In this document: positions 25,965-43,457 of the stretch, one piece after another | How the letters are laid out: every line of letters starts with the position of its first letter | Position numbering within the stretch: the stretch's first letter is position 1 | The notes under the pieces: model-generated | Seen by the model: the letters and a program-made list of their open reading frames with translations, nothing else | What the model was told of the DNA's origin: nothing | The model's database searches: none | Translations under genes and position numbers: made by a program | NCBI RefSeq assembly: GCF_002906575.1 | Contig: NZ_CP026309.1 | Location: forward strand, 372,001 to 436,000 | Source: Salinigranum rubrum | GTDB lineage: Archaea; Halobacteriota; Halobacteria; Halobacteriales; Haloferacaceae | Direction of reading: 5' to 3' | Length of the DNA: 64,000 nucleotides

Positions 25965-25987
25965 ATGGACTCGCCGGGATTTGAACC
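25965..25987. repeat. Left attachment repeat (attL core, tRNA 3' fragment)
   Basis: This 23-bp copy of the tRNA-Ala 3' end begins ATGGACTCGCCGGG and ends TTTGAACC. Identity with 43435-43457 stops sharply on both sides (next bases A versus C inward, A versus G outward). It has no tRNA 5' half, so it is an integration scar. Confidence 0.85.
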
Positions 25988-26126: not shown

Positions 26127-26160
26127 TGGACTCGCCGGGAAGGAAAGAGGCCGGGCTCAA
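26127..26160. repeat. Additional tRNA-derived fragment inside the left end
   Basis: TGGACTCGCCGGGA (26127-26140) repeats the first part of the attachment core. Directly after it, AAGGAAAGAGGCCGGGCTCA (26140-26159) resembles the anticodon-to-T-arm part of the same tRNA in the opposite orientation, with a small gap. It may mark an older integration boundary or a rearranged core. Confidence 0.45.
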
Positions 26161-26208: not shown

Positions 26209-27237
26209 TCATGACCAATCGGGCAACTGATTCTTTCGAACCGCCATCTTTTCGCGCTCTGTGCGGACGTCGTAGTGACGGTAGAGGACTTTCAACGAGA
26301 CGTTACATCGATCCGAGACAATATCGGGTTGCGTCGAATGTCGCAGATGCTCACTGATGGATGCTCGCCTGAACGCGTGAGGCCCCCGTTTCTCAGGACA
26401 TTTCTCGGGATCGGTTGTGCCTTGGCAATCTTCTGGGACTCGTCCCACAGGACATGGTCCGTACTCACATGGACGAGTCATCCGATATGTATTATCGGTG
26501 AGTGTAGTGGGGTGAGGTCGACCGTTCCGCGTGGTGATGAGCGGATCTCGACCGAATCTGTCAGTCACGTCGGGGCGATTCGGACTGTTGACGTAGTCTT
26601 GGATGATCTGAAAATATTGGGGTTTTAGGTTAACCCAGCGTTCGCCATGCTTCCCATTTTTCAGATACGTGTCTGATTCGGGTCGGTGTTTGAGGACTAA
26701 GGCATGGTCGTCCGGTCGGAGGTCGTCGACGTCAAGCGAGTGAAGCGACCCCCGGCGCATTCCTGTTCTCCACAATATGACCGCCATTGCATGATGACGT
26801 GAGGCGTATCGGTATCGATTGTGGTACTCGAGTATCTTCCGAACCCGGGAAGAATCGATAACAACATTACTTACCTCCGCACCATCGGGGAGTTCAGGCG
26901 CTTGGAGCTTCTCGGCGAGACCTCGTGAAACCGCTTCGAGAGTCACCCAGTATCGGAGAGCCTGCCGCGGCGTTGAGAGCTGTTTTTGGAGGGTGATGGG
27001 CTTCACTTCGCCATGTCGCCACTCAACAAAGTCAGAGAGATGCCGACCATTCAGAGAATTCAGATCGGTGATCTCTGCCTGCTCAAACCAATCGGTGAAG
27101 TGACCAAGTCGCGTCACTGCATTGTCGTAGGTCGAATCTCTCCATCCGGGCTTCATGTGTCTGAGGAACCTGGAAATTGCCTCATCAAGTTCCAAGGGGA
27201 CTAGGTCGTCGCTCTTATCTCGTTGATTGTGGGGCAT
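26209..27237 (-). CDS. Tyrosine recombinase (element integrase)
   Basis: Protein of 342 residues from ATG 27237 (MPHNQRDKSDDLVPLELDEA). An N-terminal SAM-like core-binding domain (about residues 20-105) precedes the catalytic domain: the first Arg in LWRTGMRRGSLHSLDVDDLR, HxxR in GPHAFRRASISEHLRH, and the Tyr nucleophile in SLKVLYRHYDVRTERE. A cysteine-bearing insertion (CEYGPCPVGRVPEDCQG) before HxxR recurs in haloarchaeal integrases. It catalyses integration and excision at the tRNA-Ala site. It reads toward the left repeat, about 50 bp from the extra core fragment. The upstream GTG start is not favoured because the family begins near MPHN. Confidence 0.9.
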   Translation of the reverse strand: MPHNQRDKSDDLVPLELDEAISRFLRHMKPGWRDSTYDNAVTRLGHFTDWFEQAEITDLNSLNGRHLSDFVEWRHGEVKPITLQKQLSTPRQALRYWVTLEAVSRGLAEKLQAPELPDGAEVSNVVIDSSRVRKILEYHNRYRYASRHHAMAVILWRTGMRRGSLHSLDVDDLRPDDHALVLKHRPESDTYLKNGKHGERWVNLKPQYFQIIQDYVNSPNRPDVTDRFGRDPLITTRNGRPHPTTLTDNTYRMTRPCEYGPCPVGRVPEDCQGTTDPEKCPEKRGPHAFRRASISEHLRHSTQPDIVSDRCNVSLKVLYRHYDVRTEREKMAVRKNQLPDWS

Positions 27238-27336
27238 GTATCGTACTTGGTGGATTTGGATAACGTGAGCCCCAAACGAAAGCATAAACAGGTGAATCCT
27301 GTAGTAACTAACGCGGGGTACTCACTCCGCCATTCA

Positions 27337-31119: not shown

Positions 31120-31713
31120 ATGGTTCGTGTCGACGACGCGGGAGACGTCACGAAGTGCTGGCTGTCCCCTGGTGAGCTTTCGACTCTCGAGCGGTCAGCT
31201 GGGAAAGACGGTTGGGAACGAGAGATCGCAGTCCAACTGATGGGGCGATGTGGCCTTCGAGCGTCCGAAGTGAGCTACCCCGGTGACGACCACCTTCGCT
31301 ACTCAGAAGAGGGCAGTGTGTGGCTGTTCGAGGTCCGCGGAAAGAACACGAAGGGTGGCGATCGTAAAACACGAGATGCTTGGATGCCCGATCACGTCGC
31401 CGACGACGTCCACAAGTACAGCCGTGAGCGGCGACTGGATCCATCGGAGTCGTGGGTCGACGTGAGTACGCCGTCGGTTCGTCGATGGGTGAAAGAAGCG
31501 GGAGAGGTGATTGCTGAGGATCTGGACGAACCACGGTGGCTGTCTGTGTCCTCGCACGACCTCAGGCGCTCGTGGGCGACGTACCACCTCGTCGAGCGGC
31601 AGGTCGACGTTCGGACGATGATGGCCATTGGTGGGTGGAGTGATTATTCAGCAATTGAACCATATCTTGCGGAACCAACCGAGGCGCGGATTGGAGAGGC
31701 AATGGGAACGTAG
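31120..31713 (+). CDS. Second tyrosine recombinase (short, orphan type)
   Basis: Protein of 197 residues containing only the catalytic domain: the first Arg in LMGRCGLRASEVSYPG, Lys in RGKNTKGGDRKTRD, HxxR in SSHDLRRSWATYHLVE, then IGGWSDYSAIEPYLAEPTEA with the nucleophile Tyr. No SAM-like N-domain is present, as in many haloarchaeal orphan recombinases of XerC/D type. It lies in the middle of the element rather than at an end. It may resolve element multimers or belong to an older nested element. No repeat was found beside it. Confidence 0.75.
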   Translation: MVRVDDAGDVTKCWLSPGELSTLERSAGKDGWEREIAVQLMGRCGLRASEVSYPGDDHLRYSEEGSVWLFEVRGKNTKGGDRKTRDAWMPDHVADDVHKYSRERRLDPSESWVDVSTPSVRRWVKEAGEVIAEDLDEPRWLSVSSHDLRRSWATYHLVERQVDVRTMMAIGGWSDYSAIEPYLAEPTEARIGEAMGT

Positions 31714-31854: not shown

Positions 31855-32307
31855 CTAGGACTGTACGTTTAAGTTGCTCGAGTACCAGCCTGGACCGCTT
31901 TGCTCCATACTCCCGTGGAAGATTCGATTGAGTTTGATTGGTTCATCGCCAGTCGGGATTACAGGGCCACTCCAGTTTTCGACATCGTCCACAACAAACT
32001 GGACACGTGGATTCCGCAAACTGAGGTAATTGACCCTGTCACGGAGTAGTCGGTGAATGTAGTCACATGCTACGTCTGCGTCATCGACCCCTAATAGATA
32101 GTCATCAAGTCCTCGAACAGTCATATCAAGCGGGATTTCCTCTCGACGCTTAAGTCGCCTAAGAAACTCGACGATACTCATCTCTTCGTCGAACATCCCA
32201 TAGTCGTCTAAGGCGTCTTCATCAATCACGTGGTAACCGATGTCGAGGTCGGAGGCCATTTGGATGTATGCTATTGTGTCATCATCTGTCTTAAATTTCC
32301 AGTTCAA
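31855..32307 (-). CDS. Hypothetical protein with unclear start
   Basis: The frame from TTG 32307 gives NWKFKTDDDTIAYIQMASDL after the initiator, 150 residues, very acidic and helical with LRDRVNYLSLRNPRVQFVVD near the middle. The ORF has no ATG at its natural upstream end: the in-frame upstream codons to a TGA contain none. An internal ATG at 32259 (MASDLDIGYHVIDEDALDD) lies 36 nt from an AAATTTAAG stretch. So the real start may be either of these, or the gene may have lost its 5' end. No function is recognised. It borders the collapsed methyltransferase fragment. Confidence 0.45.
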   Translation of the reverse strand: MNWKFKTDDDTIAYIQMASDLDIGYHVIDEDALDDYGMFDEEMSIVEFLRRLKRREEIPLDMTVRGLDDYLLGVDDADVACDYIHRLLRDRVNYLSLRNPRVQFVVDDVENWSGPVIPTGDEPIKLNRIFHGSMEQSGPGWYSSNLNVQS

Positions 32308-32342
32308 ACCAACAACAGGACGTCAATGATGTTAACACTATC

Positions 32343-32423
32343 TTACAAGAAATCGTTGACTTCTAACTGAGTGTCCGTACGCTCTGCAACGTAGTCCGCG
32401 AGGCTCGTGTACTCGGCATCATT
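32343..32423 (-). pseudogene. C-terminal remnant of a second DUF1156 methyltransferase
   Basis: Read on the minus strand, 26 codons plus stop encode NDAEYTSLADYVAERTDTQL then EVNDFL. The intact gene at 33235-35904 ends NDDEYANIADYVAERTDTQL then EFDDFF. Similarity begins abruptly at the first N. Upstream codons have no relation to the intact protein. This is the tail of a lost paralogue in the same orientation as the intact gene, and its partner is the solo domain at 32570. Confidence 0.8.
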
Positions 32424-32537
32424 CTTGACTGGTGGGGAAATTACTAAATTCGTTCATGTTGGTGATACTGAGTTACAGTAACAGGCGAGTGGAGTGTGGA
32501 GAAGACAAATGACATGGACATATTATTTCAAGGTGGA

Positions 32538-32544
32538 TTTAATA
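32538..32544 (+). promoter_or_regulatory. TATA-like box of the solo-domain gene
   Basis: TTTAATA is centred 29 nt before ATG 32570, the standard leaderless position. It suggests that the shortened gene is transcribed. Confidence 0.55.
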
Positions 32545-32569
32545 CGGACTATTGTCACTACATTAGTGA

Positions 32570-33016
32570 ATGAATCCCGCTGACGCAACTGTATTTTGGA
32601 TTGAAACAGGCGCGATGCAAGGAGAGAAACGGTATATTTTGGAAGTTGCGGAACACTTAGCCGAATTCTTTGACGAGAGAGGCCGAAAAGACGGCACTAT
32701 TGCTATCGGTCATCAAGGGACTGTTTGGCCGAGTCAAGAATTTAAACCTCACGATTCGGACCACTATTCGCCTCAGTGGCGAATCTTTCTCCCTCGCGCA
32801 TTTAGTCAGTTCTCACCGACTTATTACCCGAACAAGGTAGCACGGTTTGAGAAAGACACTACAGACGGTCAATGGTACACTGGACCATATTATGATTTAG
32901 TACTCAGAAATCCGTCACATACTGATGTTGATCGCTGGAGAAAAAATACTGAATCACAAGGGTTCAGAGATTTCACTGGGCAAGGAGACACTGGGCGAGA
33001 ATTTGGATATTATTGA
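32570..33016 (+). CDS. Solo C-terminal domain related to the PLD nuclease's DNA-binding-like domain
   Basis: Protein of 148 residues. It matches only the C-terminal domain of the intact PLD protein (36019-37074) from the ETGAMQG motif onward: ETGAMQGEKRYILEVAEHLA versus ETGAMQGQMRYILEIKEELA, SPQWRIFLP versus SPQWRVFLP, SHTDVDRW versus NHTDVESW, and final EFGYY versus EYGYW. No PLD catalytic part precedes it. In BfiI/NgoFVII-type enzymes the corresponding C-domain binds DNA; that equivalence here is inference. A promoter and a clean ATG suggest expression. It may be a left-over of a duplicate or a functional decoy. Confidence 0.7.
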   Translation: MNPADATVFWIETGAMQGEKRYILEVAEHLAEFFDERGRKDGTIAIGHQGTVWPSQEFKPHDSDHYSPQWRIFLPRAFSQFSPTYYPNKVARFEKDTTDGQWYTGPYYDLVLRNPSHTDVDRWRKNTESQGFRDFTGQGDTGREFGYY

Positions 33017-33234
33017 TTGATAAGACTGATCAGTTTTAATATACAAAAAGATGAGGGATCATCATGGGCAGTTTAGGTCCCTCATCACAGTAGCATGTCT
33101 CCTTCGTGTTGAATTCATCGATTGCGTAGTAACCGATGACAAAATCTAGGCTTATTGAGAGTATGTTTTGATAGCGTGTTATGAGCTAAACTACCATTGG
33201 AAACTAGATTAGTGAACGTAGAAATTATCAATCC
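33017..33234. other. Non-coding gap
   Basis: About 220 bp of AT-rich sequence between the solo-domain gene and the convergent methyltransferase stop. No gene or strong hairpin is seen. Confidence 0.4.
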
Positions 33235-35904
33235 TCAGAAGAAGTCGTCGAACTCCAACTGAGTGTCCGTACGTTCAGCCACGTAGTCCGCGATGTTCGC
33301 GTACTCGTCGTCGTTTTCTATATCGGCTAGTCGCCGAAGTGCTGCAATAGCACCCTCGTCGGTCCACTTACCAAATTGCTGTGAGAGCTTGTCCGCCTCA
33401 AACAAGTAACGGAGGTAGTGGGCTTTGTCGATTGCAAGGGGATTCCTCTTGTTCTCGATGCGCTCAGCGCGCCTGAGCGGCCCGAGTACATTAAGTGAAT
33501 CACCTTCTTGTTCTAGGAGTCCTTCACGGACAAGTTCAGCCACGTCGATTCCACGGGTTCGAAGATCTTTGTTGAGCGCATTGTACGAGATGCTGCCACC
33601 TCGCCCGAGAACGTAGGTGAGGTAGATTGCACTCAGAGTGTCCATTTCATCACCGAGGATTTGGACACGTTCCTCCATGAGCTGCTCATCGACGATGCCA
33701 CGGATGGTTTCGAGAGCCTTCTCCACCGACATCGTACCACCCTTGTGGGTGACGCTCGGGTAGTGCTGTGAGAACACCTCCAAGCACTTGCCCATTGTGA
33801 CCGCAAAGATGTCCCCTTGTGTGAGCCGAGAACCGCTCTGTTCGAGGCGCTCGATCTCTTGACTCGCTCGGAAGTAGATGTCATCCTCGATCGAACGCCA
33901 GCTCACTTCCTCGGGTTGCTCTTCCCGGTCTCGACACACCACGATCATGTCGTACTCAATGTTTGCCTTGTCGTGGATGTGGGTGCTCCCGCGCATTTCA
34001 CCACGAATCGGATAGAGTGCCGTGACGTAGAACCCAGCATCGAGAACAGACTGGAGCACGGTACTCCAACCCTCAGTCTCTTTATGATGGAAGGTGAACG
34101 CCATAATTCCACCCTCCTTGAGCTTCTGATTGGCCTGGTCAAAGACGTTAGTGAGCCCAGTGACAAAGTGGTCTTTGTCTCGGTACGTGTCAACGCTATC
34201 TTCGCCTGCCGGGTCACTCACGATTTCACTCGCTTTCGGCGTGAGGTCTGCGGTAAAGTGCTCGTACTCATCCTCGAGCACCTGCTTGAGCCAGACATAG
34301 TAGAAGTCCGCCGTCTCCGAGTACATCACATTGTCAAAGTAGGGCGGATCAGTAATGACAGCGTCAACGCTGTTGTCGTCTATCGGGAGGTATTCTGAGG
34401 TACCACAACGGAGATGTACATTATAGGTGGCATCAGTACTATCCCCAACAGGCTCGCCTATTTTGTCTGGATTGTCTGTCACGAACCCCTCAATTTTCCC
34501 CACACCATCCCGTTGCTTTGTTTCCCCATCCTCAACGTACTTTTCATACGGGTTCAGACAGAATTCTTTGCCTGCTCGCATCTTTTCAAATTCGGTACTA
34601 AACGTAGCGGCCCCCGCATCGGTGCCCCACACGTTGTTCTCGACAGGGGTGTGCCGTGCAGTGATGGTGTGGCGTTTGTACATCCCCTGAATCTTGTTCG
34701 CAGAGGTGTGGTACTCACAGAACATATTATTGAATGTTGTCGTGTCTGAGAACGCCAATAGGAGGAATTCCTTCACATTCTGATCTTCAATCTGTGAAAT
34801 ACCATCAAGGAGCTTCCCGAGACAGAGCAACTGTCGATCATTGAACATCTGATCGTATCGCTCATAGCCATGGTTCCGTGCCCGATCGGAGCTACCTCGG
34901 TAACGCTCTGTTGTTGGGATGGGCAACGAGTCCATTTTTTCTCCAAGCTCTTCTTCTGCTGCCTCGAACAATTCTCGATCGAATTCAGTTACGGACTTGT
35001 ATCCTTTCTTTTCTGTTTCAGGGCAATAGTATTCGACCGCAAAGAGAGATTTTTCAGCTCGTCCAAACCGCTTGACACTCTCGATAATGGACATTTCAGG
35101 GTGTTCGTCGCAATGAGGGCATGTGTATTTACCACGGGAAACATGCCCCGCATCGCTAGGTGTGTACTCGTGAGTACAATCTGGGCAGCTTGTCTCTGTC
35201 CTATAGTCGTCCGTCGTGTGGACGTTCCAACAGTCGGGACACACAACGTGGTAAAAACTATCTTTGGAGGATCGAGCGTTTGCTAACCTGTAGTCTTTGA
35301 ATAAGGGAACATTTTCTCCACAGTTTCTACAGGGCAGTTCATCGACCCAGAAGTAGTACATTGCATCTGCGTGTTCATCGCAGTGCGGACATTCCGTTCT
35401 ATAGTAATCTTGAATCTCTTGTCCAACGTCTTCTTCGAGTTTATTATAGGCCGAATCAAGTTCGTCGAGGTTAACTGGTTCAACCTCCTTCTTAACAACG
35501 AACCATGCGACTGGGTTCAACTCACTCCCAATCGCATTGCAGCCCATCCTGAGAGACTCTACAATAGTCGTCCCACCACCCATGAACGGGTCAAGGACAG
35601 TTTTTCCGTCAAAGTCGAGATCTTCAAGATAGTACTCCCAGAGAGAGTCCGGACTGTCCCAGTCTACCTCTGGGAGCCCGTTGTTTTCAGCAAACGTGGC
35701 CTGGCGTAGCCCTGCTACATTCATATCCTCGTCAGCCAGCGCGTAGATTAGCATAGTCCTGAAGACTGAGCCGAGGCGCCTGGCCCACCATTTGTGCATT
35801 GTGTACACTGGCCGGTAGTAGCGTTTGGCGTGTGCTTCGCGTTCAGCGATTGTGTTGACTTCTTCTATGGGGAAAGAAACCTCAATTGGGCGCCTATCGT
35901 TCAT
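33235..35904 (-). CDS. DUF1156-type DNA adenine methyltransferase (PglX-like)
   Basis: Protein of 889 residues. The N-terminal motif FPIEEVNTIAEREAHAKRYY and RPVYTMHKWWARRLGSVFRT define the DUF1156 (COG1743) family. LDPFMGGGTTIVES (about 104-117) is the AdoMet-binding motif and ITDPPYFDNVMY (DPPY at 519-522) the catalytic motif. Between them lie three or more Cys-rich zinc-ribbon segments (CPHCDEH ... CRNC near 172-194; CPDC ... CPDC near 222-243; CPHCDEH near 262). N6-adenine methylation is the expected reaction. It is divergent from the PLD nuclease gene with 114 bp between, and is the self-marking component of the module. Confidence 0.88.
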   Translation of the reverse strand: MNDRRPIEVSFPIEEVNTIAEREAHAKRYYRPVYTMHKWWARRLGSVFRTMLIYALADEDMNVAGLRQATFAENNGLPEVDWDSPDSLWEYYLEDLDFDGKTVLDPFMGGGTTIVESLRMGCNAIGSELNPVAWFVVKKEVEPVNLDELDSAYNKLEEDVGQEIQDYYRTECPHCDEHADAMYYFWVDELPCRNCGENVPLFKDYRLANARSSKDSFYHVVCPDCWNVHTTDDYRTETSCPDCTHEYTPSDAGHVSRGKYTCPHCDEHPEMSIIESVKRFGRAEKSLFAVEYYCPETEKKGYKSVTEFDRELFEAAEEELGEKMDSLPIPTTERYRGSSDRARNHGYERYDQMFNDRQLLCLGKLLDGISQIEDQNVKEFLLLAFSDTTTFNNMFCEYHTSANKIQGMYKRHTITARHTPVENNVWGTDAGAATFSTEFEKMRAGKEFCLNPYEKYVEDGETKQRDGVGKIEGFVTDNPDKIGEPVGDSTDATYNVHLRCGTSEYLPIDDNSVDAVITDPPYFDNVMYSETADFYYVWLKQVLEDEYEHFTADLTPKASEIVSDPAGEDSVDTYRDKDHFVTGLTNVFDQANQKLKEGGIMAFTFHHKETEGWSTVLQSVLDAGFYVTALYPIRGEMRGSTHIHDKANIEYDMIVVCRDREEQPEEVSWRSIEDDIYFRASQEIERLEQSGSRLTQGDIFAVTMGKCLEVFSQHYPSVTHKGGTMSVEKALETIRGIVDEQLMEERVQILGDEMDTLSAIYLTYVLGRGGSISYNALNKDLRTRGIDVAELVREGLLEQEGDSLNVLGPLRRAERIENKRNPLAIDKAHYLRYLFEADKLSQQFGKWTDEGAIAALRRLADIENDDEYANIADYVAERTDTQLEFDDFF

Positions 35905-36018: not shown

Positions 36019-37074
36019 ATGCTGCTCCCAAGTGGCCCAGGTATTTCGCCGAATTATGGGCAAGAAATATTTGAGACCATCTCAGAATTTGACCAACCGA
36101 TTAACGCTGGGGTTGCGTTCCCATTCGTCACGACCGACGGGTTGGACAATTATTGCTACAACAATTCAGGGGATGATTGGCGGGAGATCTGTGACTCCCA
36201 GTGGATAATCGGACTCAATCAGGGAATCACAACACCGAATGCATTAGAGGAACTCTTATCGAAAAGTCGGACTGATGTGAGGTTGTTTCTTCCCCGGGGG
36301 GAAGTCACTGAACAAGCCTTACGAAGAGGGCCTTATTTGCATGCAAAAGTGGGTGGCTTCTACTCTGAATCTACCAAGGATCAGATTTGTCTATTCGTTA
36401 CCTCCGCAAACGCAACAGGGGCTGCGATGAGTTCCCACCCGAAAAACTTCGAGATGGGTTCAAAATTATCATATCCTGACCGGATCGGTGCGGATGATAT
36501 CAGGATATTCCGTCAGTGGTGGGAAGAAGTCTCATCTAACACAGTCACATTGACTGAGGATCTAATTCGCGACTATGAGAGTGTTCGGAGTAATGTTCCA
36601 ACCTCACCACCAGAAGCTGAACAAAGCGATGTGCAACGAATAACCACCTCTTCTGATGCCAAATACATGTGGACAGAGACGGGGGCTATGCAGGGCCAGA
36701 TGAGGTACATTTTGGAGATTAAAGAGGAACTCGCAGACTTCTTCGAAGAAAAGACCCCCTCCGATTCGTACATCACGATTGAGTTCCGTGGTAACAGAGA
36801 GTCACGAAAACTCACATATCACGAGGGACATTATTCTCCACAATGGCGTGTGTTCTTGCCAACCAATTTCCCAGCACACAACGAAGACTTCTACCGTTAC
36901 AAGGTAGCACTGTTTGAGGAGCGGTTTACCGACAACGGTTCACGATACTACAGACTCCAGATCCGCAATAGGAATCACACAGATGTTGAGAGTTGGCGTC
37001 AGCAAGCGATTCAGAATGGGGTGAACGACGAGACGGGTGGTGGTGGAGATAGTAGAGAATACGGTTATTGGTGA
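36019..37074 (+). CDS. PLD-superfamily nuclease with C-terminal DNA-binding-like domain
   Basis: Protein of 351 residues. A PLD catalytic motif lies at H108-K110 (PYLHAKVGGFYSE) with S129-N131 (VTSANATG) and following NFEMG, a single HKD half-site as in dimeric BfiI- and NgoFVII-type restriction enzymes. A linker (about 190-211) leads to a C-terminal domain (212-351) that also exists alone at 32570-33016. I infer DNA cleavage as the role; the target is unknown. It ends inside the PglZ gene's 3' end (10-nt convergent overlap) and is divergent from the methyltransferase. Confidence 0.75.
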   Translation: MLLPSGPGISPNYGQEIFETISEFDQPINAGVAFPFVTTDGLDNYCYNNSGDDWREICDSQWIIGLNQGITTPNALEELLSKSRTDVRLFLPRGEVTEQALRRGPYLHAKVGGFYSESTKDQICLFVTSANATGAAMSSHPKNFEMGSKLSYPDRIGADDIRIFRQWWEEVSSNTVTLTEDLIRDYESVRSNVPTSPPEAEQSDVQRITTSSDAKYMWTETGAMQGQMRYILEIKEELADFFEEKTPSDSYITIEFRGNRESRKLTYHEGHYSPQWRVFLPTNFPAHNEDFYRYKVALFEERFTDNGSRYYRLQIRNRNHTDVESWRQQAIQNGVNDETGGGGDSREYGYW

Positions 37075-37964
37075 GTGACCTCGATCCGTGGAGTAAGACA
37101 TTCGTGTATGCTGAGGCCACCGTGCTGGTACGTCGAATACTTCCCTCTTCGTGGCCACGTGTACCGTCCGAGGGGCATGTAGAAGCCGTCGGCTTCGGCA
37201 ACGTAACCTTTCTCAACGAGGTCGTCAGCATCGACCTCGCCAACACTCTGGAACCGTCCGCCAGTGAATGTCTCCTGTAACCGCTTTTTCCAGCGATCAC
37301 TCACACCGAACGTGTGGCCAGAGTCTAGCCGTACGTACCCGTGGTCGGAGCCAAAGACAATGCGATCTGCATCAAGTTGGTCAACGATGGAGAGGAGCGC
37401 TCGCTCTGTCTTCTCGAACACCTCATCAAGAGAAGAGAGCTCCGTCTTCCCCTCCTGAATCGATTCGAGTAGTGCATCCGGATATCTACACCAAATGAGT
37501 TGTTCGTCGCCGTCAAGCGACGGATCCTGGCTCTTGACACTCGCTGTCTTGTGCTCGCTCTTGAGATCGGAGTATCCCACACGGTCACGATACGGAGTTG
37601 TCTCTGAGGGCACCGTGGAGAAGGAGTAGCCGACATTCGGTGTGAAACCCTTCGCCCCCAACGTCCGAACGAACAGCGACGCCTCACGGACGCTCATAGC
37701 ATCCATCACCACGAACGCGCCATCGTCCGGGATGTCTATCGAGGCTTGATGGACACAACGGTCGGCTAGGATGTCGTAGAACTCCGAGTACACATCTAAC
37801 AGGGTTCTCTCGTACCCGACCGCGGTAGGCTCACGGGCGTAGTGCTCACCTATGTCTTCCGCAGCTGGGGCCCAGATGTCCCAGAGGGAATCCCAGACGA
37901 CAGGGATGGGATCATCTTCTTCAATGAGTCGCTCGATTGCGTTATTCGTCAGTTTCACTCTCAA
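37065..37964 (-). CDS. Small PglZ-domain protein (alkaline phosphatase fold)
   Basis: Protein of 299 residues, much shorter than classical PglZ (600-900). VVMDAMSVREASLFVRTLGA carries the metal-binding Asp of the alkaline phosphatase superfamily; RIVFGSDHGYVRLDSG holds the later Asp-His ligands; GRYTWPRRGKYSTYQHGGLS and the final IHECLTPRIEV form the conserved PglZ end. PglZ is the only protein shared by all BREX systems, with nuclease or phosphodiesterase-like roles. Its start overlaps the DUF499 stop by 23 nt, so it is translationally coupled. Its 3' end overlaps the PLD gene in convergent orientation. Confidence 0.8.
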   Translation of the reverse strand: MRVKLTNNAIERLIEEDDPIPVVWDSLWDIWAPAAEDIGEHYAREPTAVGYERTLLDVYSEFYDILADRCVHQASIDIPDDGAFVVMDAMSVREASLFVRTLGAKGFTPNVGYSFSTVPSETTPYRDRVGYSDLKSEHKTASVKSQDPSLDGDEQLIWCRYPDALLESIQEGKTELSSLDEVFEKTERALLSIVDQLDADRIVFGSDHGYVRLDSGHTFGVSDRWKKRLQETFTGGRFQSVGEVDADDLVEKGYVAEADGFYMPLGRYTWPRRGKYSTYQHGGLSIHECLTPRIEVTHQ

Positions 37965-40466
37965 TCACCAGGTCAGCACCGATGTGGTTTGCACTCGGGA
38001 GCTTCTGAAGGAATTCTATGAGCTCCTCCTTAGAGAGGTCAGCCAAATCGTACGAGAGGTCGATGTGAGTCACTGTATCCTCGCTCTCACTAATTCTCGA
38101 CTCAGCCATACTGCGAAGTACGCGACCGGAGTTTCCCTCTAGGTAGACGTTCTTCGTGGTGGAGGTTGTCCCGATCGTGGTTCCTCCACCGCCACCACCA
38201 GTCGCTCCGGTGGATGTCGTTCCGGAACCACCTCCTCCACCGGATCCGGTGCCTGCAGTAGTGGTGCCACCTGTCTGTCCTGTTCCCCCTTCCGTCCCCC
38301 TTGTAGATGTTGTCGTCTTTTCTTCCTCGAATATCGCGTCATCTAGCGAGTCAGGGTGACGGATGACGAGCGAATCCTCAAGGTCAGGCATACGATCACC
38401 CTTGTGGGGGACGTAGAACTTAGCGTGGTCTCCTTCAAGTACGATCTTCTCGTCGTCGTAGAGCTTTCTGACCGCTGAATAGAACAGGTTGTCGTCAATG
38501 AGCACAGGCATCCTGCGGAATGCCTTGAAGTCGTTTTTCATCGACTTCAGGGTGATGCCGTTCGCTGTTCCTTCGACCTCATCAAGGATCGTCTCACTGA
38601 CGTAGGTCTTGTCACGCCCGACACTGTTTTCAACATCGCTGACACGGGCTGCGACGTTCTTTCGTCGCATTCGCAGGTCACCACTCGGGTCCACGCTCCA
38701 CTTCACCCACTTCCCGTATCTGTCGGAGAGTTCGTTGGTGAGTTCCCGGCGCTCGTCACGAATCAGACGCGACAACTCTCCTTTGTCGTCATCGACCTTA
38801 CCTTGGAGATTCTGTGCACCCAAGACCCGTGCTGCCTTCTTGATGATGTCCTCATCCTCGAGAAGCTGCTTTTTTGGGGTGACGAACAACACCGTGTTTT
38901 GGTACGTTCGTCCCTCGAAGAACTCACTCAGCTCTGCCTCAAGCGTCCCGTTCGAGAGGTAACTGAGAGTAACAACAACAGAGAGAGAATCGTTGTCAGG
39001 AATATCGTCGTTTGGGTGCACGAGCACATCCCCATCCCAGACATCGTTTCGAACGATATCGACGAGTGTCTCCTCAATGGATGCCGAGTCATCCTCCAAA
39101 ACCCGGTTCTGTTCCCGGGTGACAAGCGCAGTCAGCTTGGGGTCTTCTGTGATGTAGTAACTCGCACCACCGGAGTCCCGATCAAGATAGTGAGCCGTCC
39201 CATAAAGGCTGCTCAACGACATGTTGAGTTTGTCTACGGATGATTTCTCGGGTTTGAACGTCCCGAGGAGGCATTGCGTCACGGTTGCCATCTGTGACCG
39301 CTCATCCAATGTGTAGAGCAGAATTGTTCGGAGCAGGTCATCCCCAAAGTCGATGTCCTTCACGTGGTCTCGGTCAGAGACATAGCGGTTGAACAGCGTC
39401 TGGTTCATACCACGGAAGGCAGCTGGCCTGATGTCGCACGTAACAATGAGATCCGTTTCGTCGTACTTCCGACTGACTGTGTCTGCGAGAACGTTCATCG
39501 CGCCACGAACACTCTGTTGTTCCCGACCCGCCTCATACAGGCGGTCGAGGAGTTCGAGAAGTTCGGGGTGGAACGGATACGTCTCCACCATCCGATTCTC
39601 GTATCGCTGGAGCTCACCCAATTCCTCGGGGTTAATTGGGTTGTTGTAGTGGTCGGTATAGTTCTCGACGACATCGCGTACACCAGATTCATCAATTTCC
39701 TCACGGGGGTTTCGAAGAGTCGGTGAAGGATAATGCGTTCACGGTCTCCCGTGTCGTTCATGTCTACTGCGTAGGGGTTTGTCCGGTTGAGGATGCGTTT
39801 GAACCCGGGACTCTTATCGAGCAGAGTGACGAATACGAACAGGTTCCTCTCAGGGTCGTTTGCGACCTCAAGTAGATTCTGAAGGAAGAACTCGTTCCGT
39901 TCGAGGAGTTCACCGTCTTCGTCTCTGTCGAAGGATTCCCACCAGGTCTCGATTTCATCGAAGAAAATGGCGACTGTGTCATCTCCAACTAATGCTTCGA
40001 TGTGCTCCGTTGTGGGGTACCGCTTGATCCCTTCGAGGATTTCGGAGCCGTTGAGATTGTCAAAAATCGGCTCCCAAATTTGGTCAGCGTCCGTTTCGCT
40101 GGTTGATAGAATCGATGCCCGTGTGGTGTCCGGAAGTGGAAGGTCAATATTCCATTCGGCAAGCCAGTCTTTGCTAATGTTCGGACTGTTGAACAAGTGA
40201 TAGAGAGTAATCAGACCATGCGACTTCCCTGCACCGTATGGCCCTGAAAGTGTAATTCCCCCCTGGCTGTCGCTACCTCGAAGCTTGTCGTCAACGCGCT
40301 CAAAGGCAGTCTGTAGGGCGTTCGATGGGTAGGTCATCGAGAGGAGTCTTGTAGGATCATTCTCCAAGCGATCGGCGGAGTCACCGACTTTGTGGGCTTG
40401 AAGTACCCCTTGGAATTGGCCCTCAATTACCTCCTCGCGGGGCTGGAGGAGATCTGCGATTTGCAT
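37942..40466 (-). pseudogene. DUF499-type ATPase (BrxC/PglY-like), one-base frameshift
   Basis: The N-part (from ATG 40466) starts MQIADLLQPREEVIEGQFQG with Walker A ITLSGPYGAGKSHG (near residue 71-84) and Walker B VAIFFDEIETWWES (165 on). The C-part has HPELLELLDRLYEAGREQQS, a Gly/Thr-rich linker near 38150-38330, and a final SYDLADLSKEELIEFLQKL. The frames meet at GGGGG 39705-39709 (plus strand): one added base gives FETPREEIDESGVRDVVENY in frame and a protein of about 841 residues. The DUF499 (COG1483) family includes PglY/BrxC. A GTG 45 nt upstream is an alternative start. The break is likely a sequencing error, but if real the module is dead. Confidence 0.78.
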
Positions 40467-43135: not shown

Positions 43136-43435
43136 GCCGACCACCTCCGATTGAGGTTGCCGACAGGGTGAAGCGTCTCAGGAGTGAGCCTATATAAATG
43201 GAAGCACGGATATTCAGTTACCGCCGCCGAACATCTGGCACATGGTGTTCTGAAACCAGCAGGCGAACCGCTGCACTCATTCTCACAAACCGCGGGACGC
43301 AGGAGGTGTAAACAGGGGACCGGTTCAACTCGCGCTGTCGGCTGGTTTCTGAGACCGAGCGAGAACCTGGAATTTAGCGAGAGAGAGTCGCTAAAACTCG
43401 ATATGAGTAAAATTCGATAAAACGAAGGATTCTGA
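43136..43435. other. Non-coding right end of the element
   Basis: About 300 bp between the zinc-finger gene and the tRNA. The promoter of that gene lies here (CTATATAAAT at 43190-43199, whose reverse strand reads TTTATATAG). An 8-bp inverted repeat (TTTAGCGA/TCGCTAAA, 43373-43395) lies about 40 bp from the tRNA 3' end. T-rich stretches downstream of the tRNA on its strand can end its transcript. Confidence 0.5.
43373..43395. repeat. Inverted repeat near the right attachment site
   Basis: TTTAGCGA and TCGCTAAA are separated by GAGAGAG. Forty nucleotides from the attachment core, it could be an arm-type integrase site or part of tRNA 3' processing or termination. Confidence 0.45.
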
Positions 43436-43457
43436 TGGACTCGCCGGGATTTGAACC
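43435..43457. repeat. Right attachment repeat (attR core, inside tRNA-Ala)
   Basis: The 23-bp core identical to 25965-25987. It covers the 3' side of the tRNA from the T-loop through the discriminator base plus one flanking base, so integration leaves the tRNA intact at this end. Confidence 0.85.

What the first reader, a model, noticed from the sequence alone, without database searches (positions are those of the whole stretch)
32343..33016. Collapsed duplicate of the methyltransferase/PLD pair
Seen: at 32343-32423 (minus) lies a 26-codon tail equal in type to the end of the intact methyltransferase, and at 32570-33016 (plus) the C-terminal domain of the PLD protein. In the intact locus these two ends are the outer ends of a divergent pair. 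A deletion from inside the methyltransferase to inside the nuclease gene, removing both starts, gives exactly this remnant. It implies two related copies with diverged sequence (for example VNDFL versus FDDFF), so the element once held, or received, a second version of the system.
Basis: partly seen in the sequence, partly recalled or inferred. Interest (0 to 1): 0.8.

Follow-up and report, generated by a model that had tools for sequence, protein, structure and literature searches.

The report
Intact B3 gene between duplicated methyltransferase ends
In a haloarchaeal phage-defence island, a small intact gene for a DNA-binding (B3-fold) protein without a nuclease part sits between two partial copies of the same gene junction, so this is a scar of a duplicated or recombined defence operon rather than a simple collapse of a methyltransferase-nuclease pair.

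Summary
32343-32423 (-) is a 26-codon methyltransferase (MT) 3' end, 80% identical in DNA to the intact one; 32570-33016 (+) encodes the C-terminal domain type of the PLD protein. The mechanism proposed for it does not hold.

First, the plus-strand ORF is not a truncated nuclease. Halorubrum sp. Boch-26 carries a standalone orthologue inside the same operon, same start codon, same 148-aa length, 68% identical (only 47% to the PLD domain), with the divergence concentrated at silent sites. Its predicted fold matches B3 DNA-binding domains.

Second, a 146-bp spacer without detectable similarity to MT or PLD separates the two "fragments", so no single MT-to-PLD deletion made them.

The repeat runs about 205 bp, from the MT tail across the intergenic region into the start of the next operon gene (o31855), at 32218-32423 and 33114-33315. 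Intact MT is thus followed by a decayed start of o31855, and the MT scrap by intact o31855.

The collapsed unit is MT-o31855, with a standalone B3 gene between the copies. The operon resembles Type-3 DUF499 BREX-related systems.

The parts
32570..33016 (+).
   Evidence: Orthologue of equal length and start in Halorubrum sp. Boch-26, 68% identity; pN 0.185, pS 0.857; AF2 mean pLDDT 84; the eleven best Foldseek hits are all B3 domains, best E 1.7e-3
32343..32423 (-). Last 26 codons and stop of a second, deleted methyltransferase (MT2)
   Evidence: 65/81 bases identical to the end of intact MT; sits 86 bp before the ATG of o31855, like the MT-o31855 spacing of relatives
32218..32423 (-). Direct-repeat copy R2: MT2 tail, intergenic region, first codons of intact o31855
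   Evidence: Collinear alignment with 33114-33315
33114..33315 (-). Direct-repeat copy R1: end of intact MT, intergenic region, decayed start of a second o31855 (ATG replaced by ATA, body missing)
   Evidence: Part beyond the MT stop scores above all 2000 shuffles; intergenic part 56% identical, 4 of 1000 shuffles as good
33114..33151 (-). Remnant of the 5' end of a second o31855
   Evidence: 21/25 identity of 33114-33138 with 32218-32242, in register with the MT-tail repeat
32424..32569 (+). Spacer without detectable similarity to MT or PLD; holds a TATA-like TTTAATA (32538-32544) about 29 nt before the B3 gene's ATG
   Evidence: Alignment against shuffles; sequence read; promoter role inferred
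31855..32256 (-). o31855, last gene of the conserved operon, intact (ATG at 32256)
   Evidence: Found directly downstream of MT in the 13 of 14 MT relatives that carry the operon; full length compared with the ~131-aa relatives
33235..35904 (-). Intact DUF1156 N6-adenine methyltransferase (MT1) with DPPY motif
   Evidence: Pfam DUF1156 and N6_N4_Mtase; PADLOC HmaB
36019..37074 (+). PLD nuclease (N-terminal, HAK motif) with C-terminal B3-like domain
   Evidence: Foldseek: SauUSI for the PLD part, VAL1, UbaLAI and EcoRII-N B3 domains for the C-terminal part; weak DrmC and ZacB matches
37065..37964 (-). Standalone PglZ-like protein
   Evidence: PADLOC PglZ 6e-5; sub-threshold Pfam PglZ; same position in relatives
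37942..40466 (-). DUF499-type AAA+ ATPase, broken by a frameshift near 39700-39708
   Evidence: Two frames here, one uninterrupted frame in Boch-26 and the twelve relatives compared with it

Best explanation
The locus is a haloarchaeal DUF499/PglZ/DUF1156 BREX-related operon in which two diverged versions of the MT-o31855 end were once present in tandem and were then pared down to one working set: MT1 from one copy, o31855 from the other. The leftovers are the 26-codon MT2 tail and the decayed o31855 start. Between them lies an intact standalone B3 DNA-binding gene, divergent from MT2 as the PLD-B3 nuclease gene is divergent from MT1. Shown: the duplicated block, its extent, the intact B3 ORF and its standalone orthologue. 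Inferred: a tandem or recombinational origin with later loss of the MT2 body and the second o31855 body. Inferred function: the B3 protein binds a specific DNA site without cutting, most likely as a recognition or regulatory partner of the system, or as a competitor that tempers the PLD-B3 nuclease (functional part about 0.3).
For: Operon ATPase-PglZ-MT-o31855 in 13 of 14 MT relatives. Direct repeat of about 205 bp covering MT end, intergenic region and o31855 start on both sides of the B3 gene. Boch-26 B3 orthologue of the same length and start, in the operon between PglZ and MT. Purifying selection, pN 0.185 against pS 0.857. Low GC3 of the B3 gene in both genomes (38 and 40%, against 50-74% for the other operon genes). 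B3 fold. Isolated B3 domains of NgoAVII and BfiI bind their site as monomers (PMC4267653).
Against: No genome with two full MT-o31855 copies of this type was found. The tail is short (81 bp), so its branch cannot be placed firmly. The part of the repeat beyond MT is significant but diverged (56% in the intergenic region). Only one other standalone B3 gene is known, in the opposite orientation relative to MT. Trees show no gene of the operon as clearly foreign.
Confidence: 0.65

Rival explanations
1. One reading: a second divergent MT-PLD pair collapsed by one deletion from inside MT to inside PLD, leaving a dead C-terminal fragment.
For: Geometry (divergent, outer ends kept) and homology of both pieces.
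Against: Standalone orthologue with the same ATG and length; closer to it (68%) than to PLD (47%); 146-bp spacer without similarity to MT or PLD; ORF intact and constrained since the split from Boch-26.
Confidence: 0.1
2. Insertion model: the B3 gene arrived on a molecule that shared the MT-o31855 end and integrated by recombination there, so the two repeat copies are the crossover duplicates and a full second MT never stood here.
For: The repeat flanks the B3 gene on both sides; the B3 gene is AT-rich in both genomes.
Against: The repeat copies are only 80% (coding) and 56% (intergenic) identical, with mismatches in the tail leaning to third codon positions (4, 3, 9), which suggests the tail diverged as a working gene (weak, 16 mismatches).
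Confidence: 0.22
3. The B3 gene is itself decaying and has no function in this genome (compatible with either origin).
For: The neighbouring ATPase has a frameshift and the locus carries other scraps.
Against: Intact full-length ORF with the shared invariant residues and a TATA-like box upstream.
Confidence: 0.2

Closest known systems
DUF499-centred BREX-related (BR) systems, Type-3 (Rakesh and Krishnan 2026, PMC12839542); such DUF499 systems were earlier called Hma
   Same: DUF499 ATPase, DUF1156 N6-MTase and a standalone PglZ in one locus
   Different: No helicase gene was recognised in the conserved block here; the fourth gene is a short protein of about 131 aa without a Pfam match; the window adds PLD-B3 and B3-only genes
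R.NgoAVII / R.CglI / BfiI PLD-B3 endonucleases (PMC4267653)
   Same: Predicted PLD nuclease domain followed by a B3 DNA-binding domain; one HxK motif per chain
   Different: No sequence match in the PDB; partner genes are DUF499/PglZ/MT instead of a DEAD-Z1 ATPase
Isolated B3 domains of plant transcription factors (VAL1, RAV1) and of restriction enzymes (UbaLAI, EcoRII-N)
   Same: Predicted fold
   Different: Here a complete 148-aa gene beside a defence operon; only about 10-16% sequence identity

Membership tests
Type-3 BREX-related (DUF499) system | DUF499-type AAA+ ATPase | tested here: met
   Pfam DUF499 above cut-off in the window (31.7 bits) and in the Boch-26 single ORF; frameshifted in the window
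Type-3 BREX-related (DUF499) system | DUF1156 N6-adenine methyltransferase | tested here: met
   DUF1156 26.2 bits and N6_N4_Mtase 58.4 bits, both above cut-off
Type-3 BREX-related (DUF499) system | Standalone PglZ | tested here: inconclusive
   298-299 aa; PADLOC PglZ 6e-5 but below the Pfam cut-off
Type-3 BREX-related (DUF499) system | BrxHII-like helicase | tested here: inconclusive
   Not among the four genes conserved across relatives; flanking genes of each relative were not all scanned
Type-3 BREX-related (DUF499) system | iSTAND component | not tested
   o31855 has no Pfam match; its fold was not predicted
NgoAVII/CglI-type PLD-B3 endonuclease (36019-37074) | PLD nuclease domain plus B3 domain | tested here: met
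   Structure prediction and Foldseek; the model has only moderate confidence (mean pLDDT 73) and no Pfam PLD match was found
NgoAVII/CglI-type PLD-B3 endonuclease (32570-33016) | PLD nuclease domain | tested here: not met
   ORF starts at the B3 domain and is preceded by a stop codon
B3-like DNA-binding domain (32570-33016) | B3 pseudobarrel fold | tested here: met
   AF2 pLDDT 84; top eleven Foldseek hits are B3 domains with probability 0.93 or more, though best E is only 1.7e-3
B3-like DNA-binding domain (32570-33016) | Sequence-specific DNA binding | not testable with these tools
   Needs binding assays

The most novel reading that the evidence does not exclude
BREX-related operons use small standalone B3 proteins as exchangeable recognition or guard subunits, related to the recognition domain of their accessory PLD nuclease, and recombination at the MT-o31855 end moves these modules between operons.
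Probability: 0.2. Interest if true: 0.65.

Novelty: new variant of a known kind. Interest (0 to 1): 0.4.

Why it matters
It shows a defence operon caught after an exchange or duplication of its methyltransferase end, and it offers a natural nuclease-free version of the recognition domain of a PLD-B3 nuclease. If such B3 proteins bind the system's site, they would be a ready tool for asking which component of these little-studied systems reads the target sequence.

Tried and rejected
Single MT-to-PLD deletion: rejected because of the spacer and the standalone orthologue. A retained MT2 start codon (CATGAACGA at 32450-32458 matches the MT1 start): not significant against shuffles. Similarity of the spacer to the region upstream of the Boch-26 B3 gene: not significant. 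PglZ remnants in the 3' flank of the B3 gene: none. Foreign origin of MT1 by tree conflict: trees do not show it. Second copies elsewhere in the genome: none beyond the two described for the B3 domain and PglZ. Relatives of the B3 protein in viral contigs, phages and plasmids: none. Sequence relatives in the PDB: none convincing. The 14-bp near-repeat ACTA[C/G]ATTAGTGAA at 32557 and 33203: 3 of 100 shuffles also gave two matches, left unexplained.

Full report
Observation. The window lies in a haloarchaeal genome (its closest relatives by sequence include Halorubrum). The tail at 32343-32423 is 65/81 identical to the end of the intact methyltransferase (E = 3e-14 in the whole genome), and the ORF at 32570-33016 matches the C-terminal domain of the PLD protein at 46-47% identity.

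Setting. The island is bounded by a 23-bp exact repeat, ATGGACTCGCCGGGATTTGAACC, at 25965-25987 and 43435-43457; the second copy is the 3' end of tRNA-Ala, so it is an integrative element of about 17.5 kb with a tyrosine recombinase at 26209-27285. In 13 of 14 MT relatives examined the genes run ATPase (DUF499 type), PglZ, MT (DUF1156), o31855, all on one strand and close together (gene clustering). One relative (L059) has the MT alone. Thus o31855 is the natural downstream neighbour of MT.

What the plus-strand ORF is. Halorubrum sp. Boch-26 (NZ_JARANT010000002.1) has, between PglZ and MT and on their strand, a 148-aa gene that is 68% identical to the window ORF from the first to the last residue, beginning with the same ATG. 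The PLD domain of the window is 47% identical. Between the two standalone genes pN is 0.185 and pS 0.857 (saturated), with DNA matches of 115, 123 and 66 out of 149 at the three codon positions. That shows protein constraint over most of their separate history, not that the window gene is active today. The AF2 model has mean pLDDT 84 and its eleven best PDB matches are all B3 DNA-binding domains; the best E-value is 1.7e-3, so the fold call rests on the consistency of the list. The full PLD protein matches SauUSI in its nuclease part and VAL1, UbaLAI and EcoRII-N in its C-terminal part. In the published NgoAVII and BfiI enzymes isolated B3 domains bind their site as monomers (PMC4267653), so a B3-only protein that binds DNA is plausible.

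What surrounds it. A repeat search showed a second direct repeat in register with the MT tails: 32218-32242 against 33114-33138, spacing 896, next to 892 for the tails. Aligning the whole stretch gives one collinear block of about 205 bp, 32218-32423 against 33114-33315. It runs from the MT tail across the intergenic region into the first codons of o31855. The part beyond the MT stop scores 22 against a maximum of 19 in 2000 shuffles; tail, intergenic region and o31855 start are 80, 56 and 74% identical. The copy after intact MT has lost its start codon and the body of the gene. So the B3 gene lies between two copies of the MT-o31855 junction, each broken on the side that faces the B3 gene.

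A deletion from inside MT to inside PLD would leave the two homologous pieces joined directly. Instead 146 bp lie between them (32424-32569), and their best alignments with MT and PLD are no better than those of shuffled sequence. They contain a TATA-like box near the usual distance from the ATG. The start codon shared with Boch-26 would have to have arisen by chance at the same position.

How it arose. The pieces fit a tandem of two diverged MT-o31855 ends, one with PLD-B3 and one with B3 alone, of which the MT2 body and the second o31855 body were lost. An insertion of the B3 gene by recombination in the MT-o31855 region also gives flanking repeats and is kept as the main rival. The tail mismatches lean to third codon positions (4, 3, 9), which mildly favours divergence as a working gene. 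Distances and trees of MT, PglZ, ATPase and o31855 do not single out any window gene as foreign.

Comparison with known systems. The operon shares the DUF499 ATPase, DUF1156 MTase and standalone PglZ with the Type-3 BR systems described in PMC12839542, but no helicase was recognised in the conserved block and PglZ scores below the Pfam cut-off, so membership is not claimed. The standalone B3 gene is rare: searches of the order (293 genomes), the class (391), the window's family (170) and two further families (146 and 125), which overlap in part, gave only the window and Boch-26; other matches are full PLD-B3 proteins.

How it may work (inferred). The MT protects host DNA at a site, the ATPase and PglZ restrict unmodified invaders, and the PLD-B3 protein is an added nuclease guided by its B3 domain. 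The standalone B3 protein could occupy its own or the shared site and so guide, regulate or restrain the system. None of these steps was tested here.

Activity. The ATPase frame is broken in a run of five C near 39705, while all relatives compared have one frame. This may be a sequencing error or may mean that the system is off in this strain.

Noticed in passing
39700-39708: Frameshift in the DUF499-type ATPase at a run of five C; all relatives compared have a single open frame. Assembly error or true inactivation.
   Followed up: partly
25965-25987 and 43435-43457: 23-bp exact direct repeat marking the ends of the integrative element; one copy is the 3' end of tRNA-Ala.
   Followed up: yes
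26127-26140: A further partial copy of the attachment sequence (TGGACTCGCCGGGA) beside the integrase, perhaps an older site (read).
   Followed up: no
31120-31713: Second, short tyrosine recombinase ORF inside the element, next to o31855.
   Followed up: no
33050-33085: Strong hairpin GATGAGGGATCATC...GGTCCCTCATC between the convergent ends of the B3 gene and MT.
   Followed up: no
32555-32569: Palindrome TCACTACATTAGTGA between the TATA-like box and the ATG of the B3 gene; a near copy of part of it lies at 33203-33216.
   Followed up: partly
L049:7398-8735 (-): Boch-26 carries a separate PLD-domain protein (PLDc_2, 37 bits) about 1.3 kb downstream of its operon, so nuclease and B3 domains may sit on separate chains there.
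   Followed up: partly
L067:9596-10663 and L068:8989-10068: Distant PLD-B3-like proteins next to long genes with an NPPY methyltransferase motif, resembling single-chain restriction-modification enzymes.
   Followed up: no
L060-L063 against L051, L056: MT distances do not follow those of PglZ and ATPase: L051/L056 have a far backbone but a near MT, L060-L063 the reverse. Topology tests did not prove MT exchange.
   Followed up: partly
G000:C3:22344-24929: Second DUF1156-type MT (42% identical) on another contig of the same genome.
   Followed up: no
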